Of a DNA stretch of 33,189 nucleotides, positions 1,189 through 33,189 are shown piece after piece. Position numbers and translations under genes: made by a program. The DNA lies in the NCBI GenBank assembly GCA_039801505.1, contig JBDRUV010000011.1:1-33189 (forward strand), in the 5' to 3' direction. Source of the stretch: a candidate division WOR-3 bacterium (GTDB lineage: Bacteria; Hydrothermota; Tepidihabitantia; Tepidihabitantales; CAIPLT01). The notes under the pieces were generated by a model. That model made no database searches. It was not told the origin of the DNA and was given only the letters and a program-made list of their open reading frames with translations. The stretch's first letter is position 1. Each line of letters starts with the position of its first letter.

Positions 1189-1671
1189 ATGAGGTGGAGT
1201 TTTAGAGACCTAGACAGGTTAGTTGATGAGTTACAACGGCGATATGTGTCAAGGCATGAGTGGTCTTCTGAAGAGGGGCGAGATATTTATGAGGTGCCAT
1301 TACATTTCAGAGAGCTAGGTATTTATGAGAAAGTGAGAAATGAGCGTGAGTTTCAAGAGTTGTATGATATGGTAGTGCAGACAGAGTTGGATGATTTTAT
1401 GCAACGGATGCGAAGAAAATACGAGTGGATATTAGGTTGGTGGGTTGTAGGTGAAGGTGATGGGTGGCTTCAGGTGTTAGCATCGGGGGTGTTGGATGCC
1501 GCTAAACGTGTTAAAGCGTTTGAGTTAGAGGAAGATTTGGATTGGGTGTGTGAAGAGTTAGAACGGCGAATAAGAGAGTTGGATGATTTTAAGATGCGGT
1601 TCAGGGAGGAGTTTCTGGACAAAATAAACAGCGAAGGATTTTGGCGGGAATATGTTAAGGTAGGTGTGTAG
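1189..1671 (+). CDS. Hypothetical protein, 160 aa
   Basis: The product is acidic and helical, with repeated charged/aromatic segments (RWSFRDLDRLVDELQRRYVS at the N-terminus and an EELERRIRELDDF coiled-coil-like stretch near residues 123-135). The ribosome site is weak (AGGGGCGT). The TAG stop shares one base with the GTG start of the DUF488 gene, so the two are probably co-translated. No family recognised. Confidence 0.62.
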   Translation: MRWSFRDLDRLVDELQRRYVSRHEWSSEEGRDIYEVPLHFRELGIYEKVRNEREFQELYDMVVQTELDDFMQRMRRKYEWILGWWVVGEGDGWLQVLASGVLDAAKRVKAFELEEDLDWVCEELERRIRELDDFKMRFREEFLDKINSEGFWREYVKVGV

Positions 1672-2078
1672 TGGGCGTTTTGTATACTATAGGATATCAA
1701 GACAGGCAGATTGATGAGTTTATAGACATGGTGGCGGGGCATCGGATTGAGGTGGTTTTAGATGTCCGGGCCTCGCCATTTTCGTTTAAGCGGGGGTTTA
1801 ACTGGTATGAGTTAAAAAATCGGTTTAATGAGATAGGGGTGCGTTATATTAATGTGCCAAGTCTAGGTGTTCCTAAGGACAAAAGGGCAGATTTTAAGAC
1901 AGAGTATCCGAAAATATTAGAGGAGGGGTTTTATATGGTGTGGCAGGTTATTCAGATAGTGAGGCGGGCGTTATCGGTTCTTGTGTGTTATGAGAGAGTT
2001 CCGTCGGATTGTCATCGGGGGATATTGGCAGATTATATAAAAGACAAGGTTTTTGGAGTTGTAGTAAGACATTTATAA
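1671..2078 (+). CDS. DUF488 family protein
   Basis: Starts at a GTG overlapping the upstream stop. At 135 aa it is a full-length member of the DUF488 family: an N-terminal YTIGYQDR strand-loop, VVLDVRASPFSF (D31, R33) and the C-terminal LVCYERVPSDCHR signature with C106 and C114-H115-R116. The biochemical role of DUF488 proteins is not settled; the conserved Cys/His/Arg residues suggest a metal- or thiol-dependent activity (inference). It sits two genes upstream of a radical SAM protein in an accessory cassette. Confidence 0.85.
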   Translation: MGVLYTIGYQDRQIDEFIDMVAGHRIEVVLDVRASPFSFKRGFNWYELKNRFNEIGVRYINVPSLGVPKDKRADFKTEYPKILEEGFYMVWQVIQIVRRALSVLVCYERVPSDCHRGILADYIKDKVFGVVVRHL

Positions 2079-2547: not shown

Positions 2548-3300
2548 ATGAAGGTTATTTATACACCCACTGGCAGGGCGGGCGAATATGCCAAATGGGC
2601 GGTTAATTTATACACCGGCTGTTCTAATGGTTGTATTTACTGCTATGTTCCTAAGTTTGCTCGTCGGTCAATTGCAGATTTTCGAGAACGGGTGGTGCCT
2701 AGAAGTCAAATTTTAAGCGGTCTAAAAAAGGATTGCGAGGAGTTTAGATTTAAGGGGCATACAGGGAATGTGTTGTTGTGTTTTTTATGTGATCCGTATC
2801 CGAGGATGGTCGCAAATGTTTTTACGAGGCAGGTGTTAGAAATATTAAGCGAGCATGGTATTAAGTTCACGGTCTTGACAAAGAATGGGAGCGAGGCTGT
2901 GCGGGATTTTGACTTATACAAGGACGGCGATGAGTTTGCGACCACATTGACCTTTATTGACGATAAAGATACAGCGAAATATGAGCCAAATGCTGATAAA
3001 TATTCACAGCGGGTTGAGGCTTTAAGGGTGGCTAAAGAAAAAGGGATAAAGACCTGGGTAAGTCTAGAGCCAGTAATAAAACCCGGGGTGGCATTAGAAA
3101 TCATTAAAGAGACGCATACGATTGTGGATGAGTTTAGAATTGGGAAGTTGAACCATTTTAATATTCCGGTGGACTGGCGAAGGTTCAAAACGCAAGCAGA
3201 AGAGTTGTGTTGTAAATTAGGTGTAAGATACCTTATAAAGAAAGACTTATCTTTGATTTACAGGACGATAGAGAATTCAAGAAAATTAAAAAACACTTGA
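2548..3300 (+). CDS. Radical SAM protein, spore-photoproduct-lyase-like (COG1533 type)
   Basis: This 250-residue protein has the radical SAM cysteine motif C25-x3-C29-x2-C32 in YTGCSNGCIYCYVP, which binds a 4Fe-4S cluster and S-adenosylmethionine. Downstream segments LLCFLCDPYPR, FTVLTKNG, EFATTLTFID and GIKTWVSLEPVI match the strands of the partial TIM barrel in SplB-like proteins. The substrate is unknown; nucleic-acid repair or modification is inference. The TGA stop overlaps the -35 box of the next promoter, so this gene ends the preceding transcription unit. Confidence 0.88.
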   Translation: MKVIYTPTGRAGEYAKWAVNLYTGCSNGCIYCYVPKFARRSIADFRERVVPRSQILSGLKKDCEEFRFKGHTGNVLLCFLCDPYPRMVANVFTRQVLEILSEHGIKFTVLTKNGSEAVRDFDLYKDGDEFATTLTFIDDKDTAKYEPNADKYSQRVEALRVAKEKGIKTWVSLEPVIKPGVALEIIKETHTIVDEFRIGKLNHFNIPVDWRRFKTQAEELCCKLGVRYLIKKDLSLIYRTIENSRKLKNT

Positions 3301-4333: not shown

Positions 4334-5215
4334 ATGTCTGGTATGCGGGACTTAAAAATGAATGCGCTGTTTGAGGGTGTTTCTAGAGACATTTGCACAG
4401 AGCAGGATTTTTTATTGTCTATTGTTAAAAAACCTCGGGGTGTAAAAGAGGGTGACCTGTGGGCTTTGGATAATCACAGACTTTTGATTGGTGATGCATT
4501 CAGAGAAGAGAACTGGGAAAAACTGATAGACAAGGAGAAGGTTAGGGTGTTATTTACGGACCCGCCGTATGGGATAAATGTGATTCACAAGAAGAAAAAC
4601 GAGCTGGGCAATATTGCAGGGTTAAGTTATATAAAGGGGGCGATTGGACCTCGGCGGATTTATCCGTTTATTGTGGGTGATGATAGGCCGTTTGATCCTC
4701 GTCCGATTATGGAGTTGGCGAAAAAGTTTGGAGTTAAGAAAATGCTGTTCTTTGGCGGAAACCACTTTAGCGACAAGTTGCCAGTTTCGTCGTGTTGGTT
4801 TGTGTGGGATAAAAGGGCAGGCAGGGTTTGGGGGGTAAATATGAACCATCTTGAGTTGATTTGGACAAATCTAAAAAAGGCGTCAAAAATTTATTATCAC
4901 CTTTGGCATGGCATGATTAAAGATACAAAAGAAGAGGATACCCGAACAAGATATCATCCAACGCAAAAGCCTGTTGGGTTGTTAAAGGCGATTTTACAGG
5001 ATTGTTCTGGATCAGAAGAAGCAGTGGTTGACCCGTTTGCTGGGGCAGGTTCTATGCTAATTGCGTGCATTAAAACAAGACAGCGTTGTTTTTTAATGGA
5101 GATATCGCCGATATGGGGCGAGATAATTTTGGAGCGGTATTACAAGTTCACGGGCAAAGAGCCCATGTTGATTGATAGAAAGCAACCTTTAGAAGAAAAC
5201 AAGCAGGCATCATAA
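4334..5215 (+). CDS. DNA methyltransferase (N6-adenine or N4-cytosine), copy 1
   Basis: Motif IV, DPPYGI (D76), comes before motif I, DPFAGAGS (D233), the permuted order of beta-type methyltransferases. The N-terminal GDLWALDNHRLLIGDAF is typical of ParB-associated phage methyltransferases, but no ParB domain is attached. It would transfer a methyl group from SAM to A-N6 or C-N4 in DNA, probably against host restriction. The start is uncertain: TTG 4325, ATG 4334 and ATG 4343 are in frame and none has a good ribosome site. From codon 31 onward it is identical to the truncated copy at the window end. No cognate endonuclease is seen. Confidence 0.9.
   Translation: MSGMRDLKMNALFEGVSRDICTEQDFLLSIVKKPRGVKEGDLWALDNHRLLIGDAFREENWEKLIDKEKVRVLFTDPPYGINVIHKKKNELGNIAGLSYIKGAIGPRRIYPFIVGDDRPFDPRPIMELAKKFGVKKMLFFGGNHFSDKLPVSSCWFVWDKRAGRVWGVNMNHLELIWTNLKKASKIYYHLWHGMIKDTKEEDTRTRYHPTQKPVGLLKAILQDCSGSEEAVVDPFAGAGSMLIACIKTRQRCFLMEISPIWGEIILERYYKFTGKEPMLIDRKQPLEENKQAS
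4424..4669 (+). repeat. Exact direct repeat, internal copy (246 bp)
   Basis: Bases 4424-4669 equal 32944-33189 without a mismatch. Identity begins abruptly inside the methyltransferase gene: the ~50 bases upstream are clearly related but diverged (TTGTCTATT here, TTATCCATC there). The other copy runs off the window, so the true repeat may be longer. Confidence 0.97.
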
Positions 5216-27489: not shown

Positions 27490-27506
27490 TTTTATGATGT
27501 TTTTTA

Positions 27507-27562
27507 TTATAGTTTTAAATTATAGTTTTAACAATTATAGTTTTAACAAGAGCAGTTTTAAC
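27507..27562 (+). repeat. TTATAGTTTTAA repeats
   Basis: TTATAGTTTTAA at 27507-27518, 27520-27531 and 27535-27546, with a decayed fourth copy at about 27551-27562. It fills the gap before the gene at 27577 and ends near its ribosome site. Confidence 0.85.
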
Positions 27563-27576
27563 GAAAGGAGGGACAA

Positions 27577-27885
27577 ATGAACGACGATAGGGTTGTCAGA
27601 AGTGTAAAACAAGAGTTGAGGCGATTAGGTTATATGGTGTTTCTTTTGGTTGTCTCGCTATTAGGCGTGCTTTTAGGCAATGGTGCTGGGCTTTTCTTCA
27701 GAACCACACTAAAATGGTCTTTCGCAATTATCTTTACTCACTTCACTTGGAATAGCCTTTTCGGCGGCTACATTGATACCAAAGAGGCACTACATAACGC
27801 ACCAGATAACAAGTTTCTCGGAATTGCTATCCTCCGAGCCCTGTTTTACGCTGGCTGCTTAATATCCTTCAGTCTTATGCTGTAA
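27577..27885 (+). CDS. Small membrane protein, possible holin
   Basis: AAAGGAGGG precedes the ATG. The 102-residue product has two to three hydrophobic segments (YMVFLLVVSLLGVLLGNGAG, WSFAIIFTHFTWNSLFGG, and a C-terminal AILRALFYAGCLISFSLML). A short charged N-terminus precedes them. This class II/III-like topology and the neighbouring endopeptidase gene suggest a holin or antiholin. Confidence 0.55.
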   Translation: MNDDRVVRSVKQELRRLGYMVFLLVVSLLGVLLGNGAGLFFRTTLKWSFAIIFTHFTWNSLFGGYIDTKEALHNAPDNKFLGIAILRALFYAGCLISFSLML

Positions 27886-27916
27886 AAATGCTCTTAATAG
27901 TAAAATGCTCTTAATA
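27885..27916 (+). repeat. 17-bp-period duplication of a gene start
   Basis: AAAATGCTCTTAATA at 27885-27899 and 27902-27916. Both contain an ATG; the first opens only an 8-codon frame (MLLIVKCS), the second is the start of the M15 peptidase. Confidence 0.9.
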
Positions 27917-28306
27917 ATCCTTATTTTATTGGTCTCGCAATATTTTACTCTAAAAGAATTCGCATCGCCCGATAATGCTCCAATGCCACCTCTGGCACAA
28001 AAAAACATTACTGAGATTGTAATCCCCGGACTGACATTTATACGCAAAAACACAGGTATACCAATGATTATTACATCAGGGTATCGCTCACCTGAACACA
28101 ATGCTAAAGTCGGTGGCGTAAAAAATTCTGAACACACTCTGGGATTAGCCGCCGATGTCGCAGTTAAAAACGCAATAATGCGATACAAGTTTATCAAATA
28201 CGCATTAGCTTACCCAATAACCAGAATTGGCGTATACAACACCTTCTTACACTTCGGCTTCTCAACAGAACACCCCCAAAATGTCATCTGGACCAGCATT
28301 GAATGA
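27905..28306 (+). CDS. M15-type peptidoglycan endopeptidase (endolysin)
   Basis: 133 residues. The zinc ligands of the M15 carboxypeptidase fold are present: H77 and D84 in SEHTLGLAADVAV and H116 in FLHFGF, with SGYRSPEHN upstream. Family members cleave the peptide stem of peptidoglycan. Residues 1-11 are strongly hydrophobic (LLIILILLV), which could serve as a short signal-anchor for export; most phage M15 enzymes lack one. No ribosome site is visible, so it may depend on coupling to the upstream gene. Confidence 0.88.
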   Translation: MLLIILILLVSQYFTLKEFASPDNAPMPPLAQKNITEIVIPGLTFIRKNTGIPMIITSGYRSPEHNAKVGGVKNSEHTLGLAADVAVKNAIMRYKFIKYALAYPITRIGVYNTFLHFGFSTEHPQNVIWTSIE

Positions 28307-28349
28307 TAAAAAAAGATAAAAAAATAAAAAAGAAAGGAGGTGAAAAACA

Positions 28350-28664
28350 ATGGATATTACAGCCCTAATCCAACAATTCATACCTGCGGCAATTATGGTC
28401 TATTACTCAACCTGCGCCACAACCGTCGTCGCTATCACACAAATAATCAAAAACATTACCTCAAGCTTAGGCTACAAAATCCACGGCTTCCTCGCATTCC
28501 TCACATCCCTAATAGTCTCCTGCCTCGTAATACTCGCAACTTTCGCTAAACTACAACCAGACCTCGCAATACCGGTATGGCAATACATCGTCTCAATTAT
28601 CATTGTATGCGGAATTGCCAACGGCTTTTGGAAAGTAGCCAAACACTTTTCTGGACAACTATAA
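28350..28664 (+). CDS. Multi-span membrane protein, likely holin
   Basis: AAAGGAGGTG precedes the ATG. The 104 residues contain three membrane segments (about 10-33, 46-66 and 78-93) and a short basic C-terminus (WKVAKHFSGQL). This is typical of phage holins and the gene lies directly after the endopeptidase. It is the last gene of the late block, before a structured terminator-like element. Confidence 0.7.
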   Translation: MDITALIQQFIPAAIMVYYSTCATTVVAITQIIKNITSSLGYKIHGFLAFLTSLIVSCLVILATFAKLQPDLAIPVWQYIVSIIIVCGIANGFWKVAKHFSGQL

Positions 28665-28705
28665 AACAACTATAAAAAAACTATATAAAAAAATGACAAA
28701 ACAAA

Positions 28706-28780
28706 TGGCGTGCCACCGCATATAAGCCCGATAAACAGGCAATTCAACATTGGCGGACCTCGGCACGCCACCAAATTTTT
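28706..28780 (+). terminator. Structured element, probable end of late operon
   Basis: A 9-bp perfect stem TGGCGTGCC (28706-28714) / GGCACGCCA (28762-28770) encloses 47 bases with nested CCGC/GCGG (28716-28719, 28753-28756) and a small GCC/GGC inner hairpin, and is followed by TTTTT (28776-28780). It could terminate late transcription or be a small structured RNA. No promoter for a separate RNA was found just upstream. The rest of the 28665-29066 gap is AT-rich until the early promoter. Confidence 0.6.
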
Positions 28781-28939
28781 ATTGAGCACCAGCGTTAATA
28801 TCACTAAACAATTAACACCTCAATTTTAATTATACACCCTACACCATTCTTGCTAAACATATTTTAATTTTTCTTAAACTTCATTTATAAAACATTGTAA
28901 ATCAAAACATAACAAAAAAACGAGGGAATAAATTAACTC

Positions 28940-28967
28940 TTGACAAATATTGTTTTTTATGTATAAT
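28940..28967 (+). promoter_or_regulatory. Early promoter for recombination/replication genes
   Basis: Perfect TTGACA (28940-28945) and TATAAT (28962-28967), 16-bp spacer, 100 bp before the nuclease gene. It is one of the strongest promoters in the window and starts the early operon. Confidence 0.9.
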
Positions 28968-28982
28968 TTGGTTGAGGTTAAG

Positions 28983-29006
28983 ATGGAAAATTGTTTTGTA
29001 AAATAA
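28983..29006 (+). CDS. Possible 7-codon leader peptide MENCFVK
   Basis: ATG 28983, TAA 29004-29006, with GAGG at 28974-28977. It lies between the early promoter and the leader terminator, the arrangement of an attenuator. The ribosome site may sit at the very 5' end of the RNA, so translation is uncertain. Confidence 0.3.
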   Translation: MENCFVK

Positions 29007-29017
29007 AATAGAAATAG

Positions 29018-29047
29018 GGCGGAGCGTAAATTGCTCCGCCTTTTTTT
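29018..29047 (+). terminator. Leader terminator inside the early operon
   Basis: GGCGGAGC (29018-29025), 7-nt loop, GCTCCGCC (29033-29040) and seven T residues (29041-29047): a textbook intrinsic terminator. It is about 50 bp after the early promoter and 20 bp before the first gene, so early transcription must read through it. Confidence 0.93.
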
Positions 29048-29066
29048 AACCAAAAAAGGGGGAGTT

Positions 29067-30023
29067 ATGGATATAAAAACCACCCTGGAACAAAAAATCT
29101 CAGAATATATAAAAAACACAAAACGCAATTACCCCGTGCATTCTAACCGCGCATCTGAACTTGGGCATCCCTGTCTGCGATATCTTGTTTATTGTCGAAC
29201 TCGTTGGGAGGATAGGTTAATGCCGTCGGACGAATTACAAGTCGTGTTTAACGAAGGACGAATTCATGAACGAGCGGTTATTGAGTTATTAAACAATGCA
29301 GGTATCCCGGTCGTTGAGCAGCAAAGCACGCAATTCTGGCGCGAGTTTAACTTGTCTGGATCGATAGATGGCAAAATACTGCTTGATGGTCGGGCGATTC
29401 CGATTGAAATTAAGTCGGTTTCTCCGTATACGTTTGAGAAGATAAACGACGTCGACGACCTGTTTTTGGCAAAACAGTATTATCTCAGAAAATATCCGAC
29501 GCAAATGTTGATTTACTTATTGTTAAACAATACGGATTACGGAATATTAATCTTAAAGAATAAGGCGTCTGGACAGATTAAATTTATTGAAATCTACCTT
29601 AACTCTTATTTGGAGGTTGCTGAGGAGGCGATAAAGAAATGTGAACTTGTCGAAAAACACATTAAGGGAAACACTTTGCCGGACCAGATTAACGATTACG
29701 ACGTCTGCGGCGATTGTAGCTTCTTTCATATTTGTATGCCTAATATTGACTTACAGGAACTGCAATTTGTGTCTGACAAGGAACTTGAGGAGAAGTTAGA
29801 GCGGCGGGAGGAGTTAAGCAAATACGTAAAAGAGTATAACGAGTTGGATGTGGAGATTAAAGAGCGGTTTCGTGGCAAAGGGAACTTCAATGTTGGTGAG
29901 TTTTTAATCCAAAACATAAAAAGAACCCGCAAGGAATATCTAGTGCCTGCGGGCGAATATTTTGAGGTGCGGATAAAGAAACTGGCACCTCAAACAAAAA
30001 ACCAAAAGGGGAGGGAGGATTAA
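29067..30023 (+). CDS. Cas4/RecB-like PD-(D/E)xK exonuclease with Fe-S cysteines
   Basis: The ATG at 29067 follows GGGGGAG; an earlier in-frame start lies in the terminator and is rejected. 318 residues: H67 (GRIHE), D101 (SGSIDGK), E114 and K116 (IPIEIKS) form the nuclease site. C36, C214, C217 and C223 (YDVCGDCSFFHIC) fit the four-cysteine Fe-S cluster of Cas4/AddB-type nucleases. It probably resects DNA ends for phage recombination with the product of the next gene. Confidence 0.88.
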   Translation: MDIKTTLEQKISEYIKNTKRNYPVHSNRASELGHPCLRYLVYCRTRWEDRLMPSDELQVVFNEGRIHERAVIELLNNAGIPVVEQQSTQFWREFNLSGSIDGKILLDGRAIPIEIKSVSPYTFEKINDVDDLFLAKQYYLRKYPTQMLIYLLLNNTDYGILILKNKASGQIKFIEIYLNSYLEVAEEAIKKCELVEKHIKGNTLPDQINDYDVCGDCSFFHICMPNIDLQELQFVSDKELEEKLERREELSKYVKEYNELDVEIKERFRGKGNFNVGEFLIQNIKRTRKEYLVPAGEYFEVRIKKLAPQTKNQKGRED

Positions 30024-30024
30024 A

Positions 30025-30732
30025 ATGCCCGGCAAACAAATAAAACGAAAAGAACCACAAGTCCCAGAAGAGGCTGTTAGTCAGGCAGAGCCCCTACCAA
30101 ATCCAATGTTAGCAGTGCAGCGAGCTCAAGAGATGCAAGAGGCAATCCGCAAGGTGCTTCGCATTGCGGTTCAGCAGACTAATCCTGAGGACTGGGTAGA
30201 CCAAGGCGACAAACCATATCTGACTGCTGCTGGAGCTGAAAAAATTCGTGTGCTTTTCGGTATTAGTTTTAAGATAGTTCCAACCGGCCAATCAACACCT
30301 TATCTGATTGAAAATCATCCAGATGGACACTATACGATAACTTTTGAGGGGGAGTTTACATTTGCTGGTCAAACAATATCAGTAATTGGTTCTCGCTCAA
30401 GCAACGACCCGTTTTTCTGTAAGCGATATATAAACGGCAGAGAAGTTCAGCTGCCACCACAAGAAATCGATATTAAGGATGTGATTATGGCAGCATATAG
30501 TAATTTAATTATGAATGGCATTACGCGAATATTGGGGATAAGAAACTTAACTTGGGAAATGCTGAGAGATGCCGGTCTGGACTTAACCAAAATAAAGCGA
30601 GTTGTGTATCGTCAGAAGCCCCAACAGCCGCTCCAACAGCCGTATCAACAGTCAAAACAACCCCCAAATCAAACAACTAATCAATCATCCAGTCAACCAA
30701 ACCAACAACTAAAACAACCCCCAAATGTTTAG
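30025..30732 (+). CDS. Probable recombination partner protein with Q/N/P-rich tail
   Basis: 235 residues starting 2 bp after the nuclease stop. The core has DWVDQGDKPYLTAAGAEKIR (about 57-76), a pattern I associate with phage proteins encoded beside Cas4-like nucleases; a single-strand-annealing (Rad52-like) role is inference. A beta-rich middle (HYTITFEGEFTFAGQTISVI) is followed by helices. The last ~40 residues are a disordered Gln/Pro/Asn tail, as in SSB-like proteins, perhaps for protein contacts. The + strand is C-rich here, continuing into the next gene. Confidence 0.6.
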   Translation: MPGKQIKRKEPQVPEEAVSQAEPLPNPMLAVQRAQEMQEAIRKVLRIAVQQTNPEDWVDQGDKPYLTAAGAEKIRVLFGISFKIVPTGQSTPYLIENHPDGHYTITFEGEFTFAGQTISVIGSRSSNDPFFCKRYINGREVQLPPQEIDIKDVIMAAYSNLIMNGITRILGIRNLTWEMLRDAGLDLTKIKRVVYRQKPQQPLQQPYQQSKQPPNQTTNQSSSQPNQQLKQPPNV

Positions 30733-30735
30733 TTT

Positions 30736-31971
30736 ATGTTTAGACCAGATTTTTTGATTATCCCAACTCAATTGATAACTGACAAACGATTAACTCCAAC
30801 CGACTGCCTCGTCTTTAGCGTTATATATTGGTCCGAACATCTAAAAAACGGCAGATGTCTACTATCAAATGAAGTCATTGGCAAAATAATCTTAAAAGAT
30901 ACCGGCACTGTAGCCAACTCTATATCAAAACTTCGCCAACTCGGCTATGTCGGTATAATCCGACACGGCAATATGCGCGAACTTACAACCCAAATCGCAT
31001 TCAAAACCATTAAAGTAGCCCCCTCTCTACTACCCGAGGGGGCTACGTCCCCTCAAAATGTGGATAACCTGTGGATAACTCAAAAACTTACCAAAAATGA
31101 AGCTACTATATATAGTGGTTCTTTAAAAAATAAAGCACAAAATGTAGGGGGTGGATGTATGGTTTCATTAAATAATGAAGCACTTTCATTAAATAATGAA
31201 GAGGTTTCATTAAATAATGAAACGCTTTCATTAAATAATGAACATAAAGAGAATATAATAGAGAATATAAATATATATAATCTCACTTTTAATAATAAAA
31301 GTGAGAGCGTTGGTAAAAGCAACGCTCCTCCTTTTTCTTTGTCTGATGATGTATCACTAAAGGAAAGGAAAAAGTATTATGCTTGGTTAAACTCGGTGGC
31401 AAAGAGGCTGGTTGACGTGTGGAACGAGTATGGTATTTTGCCGATGCAGGATGTTAAAAACTCGTTGCCGGTGGCGTATCGACGGTTGGTATTCCCGGTG
31501 ATAGAGCGGGTGGGGGAGGGTCGTTTGGAGTGTGCGATAAGGTTTTATTTTTGGTGTGTGCGGAACAATTTAGCCAGTGCGATAGATTTTGTGAGGTGGT
31601 TTACGTGGCGTAAGTATAATGAGTTTCAGGTGATAGATATTTTTTCTGATAATACGATTGAGCAGTTAGGCAGGTTGATAAGTTTTTATGAGGAGGCGAA
31701 GAGTAAGGGGGCTTTGATGGTGTTTATGAGCAGGTTATCAAATTCGCGGATGTGGAGTCGGATAAGTATGCATCATGGTGGTATTTTGGAGAAGTTGGAG
31801 CGTCAAAACAGGAGTGTTATAGAGTTGATAGAGTTTTATAGTGATTTATTAGTGAGGATAAAGGGGCAAGGGGCGAGGTCAAATACGTCCCAAGAGTCAA
31901 AAGAGCAAAAAGAGCCAAAAAAAGAGCCAAAAGAGAAGCAAGAGCAGGGGGAGCAAGGAGGGGTAAAATGA
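30736..31971 (+). CDS. Replication initiator, lambda O-like organisation
   Basis: 411 residues. The N-terminal ~95 form a winged helix of the HTH_36 type (RLTPTDCLVFSVIYWSEHLK, then IILKDTGTVANSISKLRQLG). Residues about 95-205 are a low-complexity linker that contains the iterons (four SLNNE repeats). The C-terminal ~200 residues are helical and probably contact the replication machinery (helicase loading is the lambda O role). The N-terminal half is C-rich in the + strand and the C-terminal half strongly G-rich, so the gene looks like a fusion joined at the origin. An acidic/basic KE-rich tail ends the protein. Confidence 0.8.
   Translation: MFRPDFLIIPTQLITDKRLTPTDCLVFSVIYWSEHLKNGRCLLSNEVIGKIILKDTGTVANSISKLRQLGYVGIIRHGNMRELTTQIAFKTIKVAPSLLPEGATSPQNVDNLWITQKLTKNEATIYSGSLKNKAQNVGGGCMVSLNNEALSLNNEEVSLNNETLSLNNEHKENIIENINIYNLTFNNKSESVGKSNAPPFSLSDDVSLKERKKYYAWLNSVAKRLVDVWNEYGILPMQDVKNSLPVAYRRLVFPVIERVGEGRLECAIRFYFWCVRNNLASAIDFVRWFTWRKYNEFQVIDIFSDNTIEQLGRLISFYEEAKSKGALMVFMSRLSNSRMWSRISMHHGGILEKLERQNRSVIELIEFYSDLLVRIKGQGARSNTSQESKEQKEPKKEPKEKQEQGEQGGVK
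31059..31078 (-). promoter_or_regulatory. Two perfect DnaA boxes
   Basis: TGTGGATAA at 31059-31067 and 31070-31078, each the exact reverse complement of the DnaA box TTATCCACA. Their 11-bp period puts them on the same face of the helix. They suggest that host DnaA takes part in origin opening. Confidence 0.8.
31164..31242 (+). repeat. Four origin iterons, 21-bp period
   Basis: TTCATTAAATAATGAA (arms TTCATTA and TAATGAA around AA) at 31164-31179, 31185-31200, 31206-31221 and 31227-31242, all identical. The 21-bp spacing is two helical turns and seven codons, so it is in phase both with the helix and the reading frame (SLNNE units). Likely binding sites for the initiator's winged helix. Confidence 0.93.
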
Positions 31972-32339
31972 ATTTAAGGGTTCAAAGGGCAATATTTTTT
32001 GCCAAAATGTATAAAAAAATAAAACAGGAGCGTGCCGAGTTAAACAAGCGGTATATAAGGATAAAGTATGAGTATCAGCAGTGTAGAATACAGCGGCGTC
32101 TTTTAGATGTTTATCTCGTGCTTTACAAGGCTTTTAAGTATCGTTGGTTTACGGCAGAAGAGGCGGTAAAGGTGATAGCTCCGTCGATGGGTTTTACTTC
32201 TCAGTATTTTTCGACGATGACTTATATTACTCGTTTACGGTATTTAGGATTGGTTGAGGTGCGAAGGGAGAAGTGTAGCGATTCTGGACCAAAGGGGAGC
32301 ATAAAAAAATATACAAAGAAATACAGGCTAATTCCTTAA
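31968..32339 (+). CDS. Winged-helix-like small protein, 123 aa
   Basis: ATG overlaps the initiator stop (ATGA). The N-terminal half is basic and helical (KKIKQERAELNKRYIRIKYE); the C-terminal half (TAEEAVKVIAPSMGFTSQYF, then ITRLRYLGLVEVRRE) looks like a winged-helix fold. Placed like lambda P, which follows O, but no helicase-loader motif is visible. It may be a regulator or replication accessory. Confidence 0.6.
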   Translation: MNLRVQRAIFFAKMYKKIKQERAELNKRYIRIKYEYQQCRIQRRLLDVYLVLYKAFKYRWFTAEEAVKVIAPSMGFTSQYFSTMTYITRLRYLGLVEVRREKCSDSGPKGSIKKYTKKYRLIP

Positions 32340-32853: not shown

Positions 32854-33189
32854 ATGATAGATCCCAAAGGGGTGCCAAAAAAGATGCTTATTAAAGACAT
32901 TTCAAGGGATATTTGTACAGAGGAGGATTTTTTATTATCCATCGTTAAAAAACCTCGGGGTGTAAAAGAGGGTGACCTGTGGGCTTTGGATAATCACAGA
33001 CTTTTGATTGGTGATGCATTCAGAGAAGAGAACTGGGAAAAACTGATAGACAAGGAGAAGGTTAGGGTGTTATTTACGGACCCGCCGTATGGGATAAATG
33101 TGATTCACAAGAAGAAAAACGAGCTGGGCAATATTGCAGGGTTAAGTTATATAAAGGGGGCGATTGGACCTCGGCGGATTTATCCGTTT
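32854..33189 (+). CDS. DNA methyltransferase, copy 2, cut by window end
   Basis: GGGG (32846-32849) precedes ATG 32854. 112 codons are open to the last base. The first 30 residues (MIDPKGVPKKMLIKDISRDI) differ from copy 1 but share SRDICTE and DFLLSIVKK; from codon 31 the DNA is identical to copy 1, including the DPPYGI motif. The 3' part lies outside the window, so whether this copy is complete is unknown. Confidence 0.88.
   Translation, partial: MIDPKGVPKKMLIKDISRDICTEEDFLLSIVKKPRGVKEGDLWALDNHRLLIGDAFREENWEKLIDKEKVRVLFTDPPYGINVIHKKKNELGNIAGLSYIKGAIGPRRIYPF
32944..33189 (+). repeat. Exact direct repeat, terminal copy (at least 246 bp)
   Basis: Identical to 4424-4669 up to the last base of the window. 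See the internal copy. Confidence 0.97.

What the first reader, a model, noticed from the sequence alone, without database searches (positions are those of the whole stretch)
30736..31971. Replication origin embedded in its own initiator gene, lambda-style
Seen: two perfect DnaA boxes, four identical palindromic iterons at 21-bp period, an AT-rich block and two perfect inverted repeats, all inside one reading frame and encoding a SLNNE heptad array. Known: lambda ori lies in gene O with iterons, an AT-rich region and a palindrome in the same order. The winged-helix N-terminus here is of a different type, and lambda's iterons are not preceded by tandem DnaA boxes, so this looks like an independent or hybrid version of the scheme.
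Basis: partly seen in the sequence, partly recalled or inferred. Interest (0 to 1): 0.85.

Follow-up and report, generated by a model that had tools for sequence, protein, structure and literature searches.

The report
Phage replication origin inside initiator gene
A phage of an uncultured bacterium carries what is very probably its DNA replication start site inside the gene for its own start-up protein; this layout is already known from many phages, and the new part is a pair of host-type DnaA binding sites built into the same stretch.

Summary
In detail: inside one 411-codon reading frame (30736-31971) lie two perfect DnaA boxes 11 bp apart, four identical 16-bp palindromes at a 21-bp period, an 87.5% A+T block and perfect inverted repeats, far beyond chance. 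The lambda comparison is only an analogy. The N-terminus is an HTH_36 winged helix shared with phage initiators (Staphylococcus, Lactococcus, Fusobacterium, Lactobacillus, Erysipelothrix), not lambda O. In a survey of 38 such genes, all 38 carry tandem repeats behind that domain. In-gene origins are experimentally known (TP901-1, Tuc2009, SPP1, pSK41). So this is a divergent member of a known scheme, not an independent invention. What sets it apart: the tandem perfect DnaA boxes (a single box in 1 of 38 relatives), A+T-only iterons, a C-terminal half without detectable relatives, no recognisable helicase loader on the contig, and a host whose dnaA locus carries the same box. Most likely the initiator and host DnaA together open the origin.

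The parts
30736..31971 (+). Replication initiator gene, 411 aa: HTH_36-type winged helix (aa about 6-79), linker made of origin DNA (aa about 95-200), C-terminal half without detectable relatives
   Evidence: PF13730 E 2.8e-5, 24.3 bits, cut-off 25; phrog_8102/2880/270 'replication initiation protein'
31015..31046 (.). Perfect inverted repeat, 11-bp G+C-rich arms, 10-nt loop, left border of the origin block; the third-position GC-skew switch falls inside it (31035/31038)
31059..31067 (-). Perfect DnaA box TTATCCACA
31070..31078 (-). Perfect DnaA box TTATCCACA, 11 bp from the first, same orientation, other reading frame
31105..31116 (.). Palindrome ACTATATATAGT between the DnaA boxes and the iterons
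31164..31179 (+). Iteron 1, TTCATTAAATAATGAA
31185..31200 (+). Iteron 2
31206..31221 (+). Iteron 3 (here the palindrome extends to 31204-31223)
31227..31242 (+). Iteron 4
31241..31280 (.). A+T-rich block (87.5%), presumed unwinding element; encodes HKENIIENINIYN
   Evidence: function inferred
31281..31306 (.). Perfect inverted repeat, 11-bp arms, 4-nt loop
31305..31327 (.). Inverted repeat, 8-bp arms, 7-nt loop, followed by CTCCTTTTTC (terminator-like on +)

Best explanation
The gene encodes the phage's replication initiator, and the middle of the gene is the phage origin. Its winged-helix N-terminus binds the four palindromic iterons (inferred); host DnaA binds the two adjacent boxes (inferred); together they open the A+T block at 31241-31280 (inferred). 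The host helicase is then brought in by DnaA, by the initiator's C-terminal half, or both, since no loader or helicase is recognisable on the contig. The linker peptide (SLNNE repeats) is mainly a by-product of the DNA sites. To the right of the block the + strand is the leading strand, where G is strongly favoured. Shown: the sites, the family relation of the wHTH, in-gene repeats in all surveyed relatives, the skew switch, the host dnaA locus with the same box. Not shown: any binding, melting or replication.
For: wHTH relation to annotated phage initiators; a profile built without the window finds it at 32 bits, but not lambda O, TP901-1, Tuc2009 or r1t. Same layout in 38 of 38 non-redundant relatives, each above all codon shuffles; palindromes three times commoner there than in shuffles (1.58 against 0.51). 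Iterons identical at synonymous sites. Third-position skew change logLR 35.8 at 31035, 0 of 2000 permutations, other long genes at most 12.1. Host dnaA gene at C1:52249-53596 flanked by four perfect TTATCCACA; the tandem pair occurs once in the host assembly and in 6 of 147 phylum genomes. In-gene origins shown by experiment: TP901-1 and Tuc2009 (PMC8965321), pSK41, and the plasmid pPR9 with an HTH_36 N-terminus, whose rep region replicates autonomously (PMC5703833).
Against: No close homologue in any collection, so iteron conservation could not be tested in a near relative. The family relation rests on about 75 residues at 26-32% identity, and the Pfam score is just under its cut-off. The left side of the skew is not uniform (genes 29067-30732 are +0.19), so a mosaic join could contribute to the switch; lambda O shows no such switch. 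DnaA participation rests on sequence and host box usage only. Assignment of the contig to this host rests on genome binning.
Confidence: 0.82

Rival explanations
1. It is an in-gene origin, but the initiator alone opens it and the DnaA boxes only regulate it, for example by tying initiation or transcription to host DnaA level, as DnaA acts on lambda through the pR promoter.
For: Most relatives (37 of 38) have no perfect DnaA box in the gene and yet have the rest. DnaA affects lambda through pR (PMC7466680).
Against: The boxes sit about 85 bp from the iterons inside the origin block in oriC-like tandem arrangement, and no promoter stands out there. No phage loader is seen, so another route to the helicase is missing.
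Confidence: 0.3
2. The palindromic array is a partition or operator site (centromere-like or autoregulatory), not the origin.
For: Winged-helix proteins bind palindrome arrays in partition systems; the wHTH profile gives a weak match to TubR (E 0.09).
Against: No ParA, TubZ or other P-loop partner in the window (only a spurious Walker A on the minus strand). Same layout in genes annotated as replication initiators, A+T block next to it, skew switch.
Confidence: 0.07
3. The repeats are a protein-level feature (an SLNNE spacer repeat) from a recent tandem duplication, with no DNA function.
For: The repeats are in frame and encode a 7-residue-period peptide.
Against: Spacers have diverged (4 of 5 columns vary) while 0 of 16 palindrome columns vary (5/5985 by chance, hand count on the sequence); identical synonymous codons although TCA and GAA are minority codons here (0.13, 0.23); relatives have different peptides but repeated, often palindromic DNA in the same place.
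Confidence: 0.04
4. The skew switch marks a mosaic junction: the N-terminal and C-terminal halves of the gene come from different phages joined at the origin block. Compatible with the origin, but it would remove the skew as independent evidence.
For: Such initiators are modular; pPR9 is a natural HTH_36/pSK41 chimera (PMC5703833). Relatives have diverse C-termini. Left-side skew is patchy.
Against: It does not by itself explain a strongly negative third-position skew in a + strand gene; the direction of the switch fits an origin; relatives show a weaker change in the same direction (29 of 38, not independent).
Confidence: 0.25

Closest known systems
HTH_36 (PF13730) phage initiators: Staphylococcus phages 77 and SP120, Lactococcus phi31.1/63301, Fusobacterium FNU4, Lactobacillus Lcr_AB1, Erysipelothrix SE-1; PHROG 8102/2880/270
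   Same: wHTH N-terminus, tandem repeats (often palindromic) directly behind it in the gene, A+T/Asn-rich linker, separate C-terminal half
   Different: Only 26-32% identity in the wHTH; period 21 rather than 22-24 or 45-48; iterons A+T-rich TTCATTAAATAATGAA, not TCAATACCCCTATTGA-like; two DnaA boxes; unrelated C-terminus; no loader gene next to it
Plasmid pPR9-type hybrid initiators (HTH_36 NTD + pSK41 CTD) and RepA_N plasmid pSK41 (PMC5703833)
   Same: pSK41: origin in the middle of rep, NTD binds it, linker encoded by origin DNA and dispensable as protein, C-terminus host-specific. pPR9: HTH_36-type NTD, rep region replicates autonomously
   Different: Plasmids of staphylococci; pSK41 NTD is RepA_N, not HTH_36; no DnaA boxes mentioned in the passages read
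Lactococcal phage replisome organizers TP901-1 ORF13 and Tuc2009 Rep2009 (PMC8965321); SPP1 G38P and Staphylococcus phage 80alpha ORF20 (PMC5499656)
   Same: Origin inside the initiator gene, by experiment (for 80alpha inferred from failed complementation)
   Different: N-termini of TP901-1 and Tuc2009 Rep do not match the HTH_36 profile; 80alpha and SPP1 were not compared here
Lambda O / ori-lambda
   Same: In-gene array of four inverted-repeat iterons followed by an A+T tract
   Different: No match to the family profile, no lambda-O-type Pfam hit for the window protein, P-type partner absent, no DnaA-like box found in the O gene

Membership tests
HTH_36 phage initiators with in-gene origin | HTH_36-type winged helix at the N-terminus | tested here: met
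   Pfam 24.3 bits against cut-off 25 (marginal); profile built without the window 32 bits
HTH_36 phage initiators with in-gene origin | Tandem repeats inside the gene directly after the wHTH | tested here: met
   Score 44 against shuffle maximum 13.5; 38 of 38 relatives have them
HTH_36 phage initiators with in-gene origin | A+T-rich linker after the repeats | tested here: met
   31241-31280, 87.5% A+T; relatives 0.74 against 0.68 and 0.66 on either side
HTH_36 phage initiators with in-gene origin | Initiator binds its repeats and drives replication | not testable with these tools
   Needs biochemistry
HTH_36 phage initiators with in-gene origin | Helicase loader gene next door (common, not universal, so not defining) | tested here: not met
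   No P-loop protein on the contig; the same crude test finds one in 16 of 35 relatives; contig ends are open
Lambda O / ori-lambda | Lambda-O-type N-terminal domain | tested here: not met
   No such Pfam hit for the window; lambda O scores -0.9 bits with the profile that finds the window at 32 bits
Lambda O / ori-lambda | In-gene palindromic iterons followed by an A+T tract | tested here: met
   Sequence; lambda iterons 39034-39118 annotated in gene O
Lambda O / ori-lambda | P-type helicase loader directly downstream | tested here: not met
   Next gene 31968-32339 has no such match
RepA_N plasmid initiators | RepA_N domain | tested here: not met
   No PF06970 hit
DnaA-assisted origins | Perfect DnaA boxes of the host type close to the initiator sites | tested here: met
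DnaA-assisted origins | DnaA binds and is required | not testable with these tools
   Needs footprint and dnaA depletion

The most novel reading that the evidence does not exclude
An in-gene phage origin that has taken in a chromosomal-type DnaA-box pair, so that DnaA recruits the host helicase and the phage can do without its own loader: a composite of the phage in-gene origin and the chromosomal DnaA origin.
Probability: 0.35. Interest if true: 0.55.

Novelty: new variant of a known kind. Interest (0 to 1): 0.4.

Why it matters
It extends the in-gene origin scheme to a phage of an uncultured bacterial group and shows a version with host DnaA sites built into the coding sequence. The survey gives a simple rule (HTH_36-type wHTH, then iterons, then A+T linker) by which origins can be read directly from phage initiator genes, and the third-position skew switch inside one gene is an independent marker for such an origin. 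If DnaA is needed, it links phage replication to host initiation control.

Tried and rejected
Close homologues: none in IMG/VR, GTDB contigs or 61 related genomes, nor for the C-terminal half. The SLNNE array in any codons: none in IMG/VR; the paired palindrome: none in IMG/VR or genome contigs. Anchoring on terminase and on the Cas4-like exonuclease gave only distant phages, and the one stretch examined had no initiator. Single-sequence fold of the initiator failed (mean pLDDT 34) and was not used; no solved structure matches it. An alignment that included the window was too divergent for a scan, so relatives alone were used. Rfam gave nothing. Phylum hits of the wHTH profile: L025 (same host family) has two short palindromes 24 bp apart behind its wHTH, but the repeat score (9.5) is within its shuffles (the stretch reported for L025 was misplaced); L026 and L027 look like other HTH proteins. 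Considered and rejected: protein-level repeat, partition site.

Full report
What is in the sequence. The reading frame 30736-31971 (411 aa) contains, in order: a perfect inverted repeat (31015-31046), two perfect DnaA boxes (31059, 31070), a short palindrome (31105-31116), four identical 16-bp palindromes at 21-bp spacing (31164-31242), a block of 87.5% A+T (31241-31280) and two further inverted repeats (31281-31306, 31305-31327).

Chance. The repeat array scores 44, against at most 13.5 in codon shuffles of the same gene. With the peptide repeat given, four copies sharing all five codons has probability about 1.7e-5 under window codon usage, and two of those codons are minority codons. The spacers between the palindromes differ in 4 of 5 columns while none of the 16 palindrome columns differ (hand count). 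Two perfect DnaA boxes never arose in 3000 dinucleotide shuffles of the gene; they lie in different frames, so no peptide repeat explains them. A caution: in shuffles that keep the protein, 19 of 300 had two boxes, because the peptide NVDNLWIT itself allows them; the linker peptide is probably dictated by the DNA rather than the reverse, but this is inference. With one mismatch allowed, boxes in the window are no commoner than chance, so the signal is the perfect pair only.

An independent signature. Over most of the window + strand genes have a third-position GC skew of about +0.4 to +0.85. In this gene the part before the origin block has -0.62 and the part after it +0.74. A change-point fit puts the switch at 31035/31038 with a log-likelihood gain of 35.8; none of 2000 permutations exceeded 10.5, and the other long genes tested gave at most 12.1. 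The all-site profile shows the same. The direction is that of a replication origin. The left side is patchy (+0.19 for 29067-30732, negative for 27577-28664), so a mosaic join may contribute.

Which family. The N-terminus matches HTH_36 (E 2.8e-5, just under the Pfam cut-off) and three PHROGs named replication initiation protein. tblastn links it to the initiator of Erysipelothrix phage SE-1 (31%, E 4e-4) and, more weakly, to those of Staphylococcus, Lactococcus, Fusobacterium, Lactobacillus and Acetoanaerobium phages. A profile made only from such phages finds the window at 32 bits and does not find lambda O, TP901-1 Rep, Tuc2009 Rep or r1t ORF11.

Do relatives have the repeats. Yes. Of the phage genes first fetched nearly all have them, while two plasmid Rep hits do not. 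From IMG/VR, 38 non-redundant genes were taken; in all 38 the best tandem array exceeds every codon shuffle and lies behind the wHTH, mostly in codons 92-140. In about a third of them the top-scoring array is the Asn-rich linker repeat (AATAATACAAG) rather than the iterons proper, but iteron-type units are visible in most of the same genes. Palindromes with arms of 5 or more are three times commoner there than in shuffles, and 17 of 38 have two or more. The set is rich in Firmicutes phages and is not a random sample. A perfect DnaA box inside the gene was seen once in 38 (L028, the Lcr_AB1 type).

DnaA. The host assembly has a dnaA gene (C1:52249-53596) with perfect TTATCCACA at 52092, 52257, 53628 and 53704, so the host DnaA very probably reads this box. 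The 11-bp tandem pair occurs only once in the host assembly, in the window, and in 6 of 147 genomes of the phylum. In IMG/VR the tandem pair is not rare (at least 120 contigs), usually outside long genes; one contig (L136) has a gene with a related wHTH and no in-gene repeats, with a DnaA-box cluster directly behind it, so pairing of this kind of initiator with DnaA boxes is not unique.

Helicase. No helicase, loader or P-loop protein was recognised on the contig. Nearby P-loop genes were found in 16 of 35 relatives by a crude motif test. The contig has open ends, so absence is provisional.

Literature. In-gene origins with experimental support: TP901-1 ORF13 and Tuc2009 Rep2009 bind repeats within their own genes (PMC8965321); SPP1 G38P and probably 80alpha ORF20 (PMC5499656); pSK41, and pPR9, whose N-terminus is HTH_36 and whose rep region replicates autonomously (PMC5703833); lambdoid O genes (PMC7466680).

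Mechanism. Most likely the initiator N-terminus occupies the palindromes, host DnaA the adjacent pair, and the A+T block opens; the helicase is host-derived. All steps after the sequence features are inferred.

Noticed in passing
window 32900-33189 and 4380-4669: The last 290 bp of the window repeat 4380-4669 at 97% identity (start of a DNA methyltransferase gene); the contig probably ends at this repeat. Two methyltransferase copies or a strain variant; the contig ends are found nowhere else in the assembly.
   Followed up: partly
window 28940-29042: A consensus sigma-70 promoter (12 of 12) at 28940-28967 is followed by a strong terminator-like hairpin at 29016-29042, just before the operon that contains the initiator; looks like an attenuated or antiterminated early operon.
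   Followed up: no
window 27500-31040: This stretch has low or negative GC skew although its genes are on the + strand, unlike the rest of the window; possible short left replication arm with an end near 27.5 kb.
   Followed up: partly
window 29067-30732: Cas4-like exonuclease gene followed by a gene whose product looks like a single-strand annealing protein with a Q/P-rich tail (the second by eye only; no family match).
   Followed up: no
L041, L043, L053, L054: In some relatives the iteron itself (GGGGTATCCACAAAAAG) contains 8 of 9 bases of a DnaA box; possible overlap of initiator and DnaA recognition.
   Followed up: no
L136 (reverse strand, about 170-1120): wHTH initiator-like gene without in-gene repeats, with a cluster of DnaA boxes directly behind it.
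   Followed up: partly
L025 (reverse strand, 1462-2454): Distant wHTH relative in a genome of the same host family, with two short palindromes (GACATGGATGTC, GGACACAGATGTCC) 24 bp apart behind the wHTH; not above shuffles.
   Followed up: partly
window 1671-2078 and 2548-3300: DUF488 gene and a radical-SAM/DUF5131-like gene in the accessory part of the phage contig.
   Followed up: no
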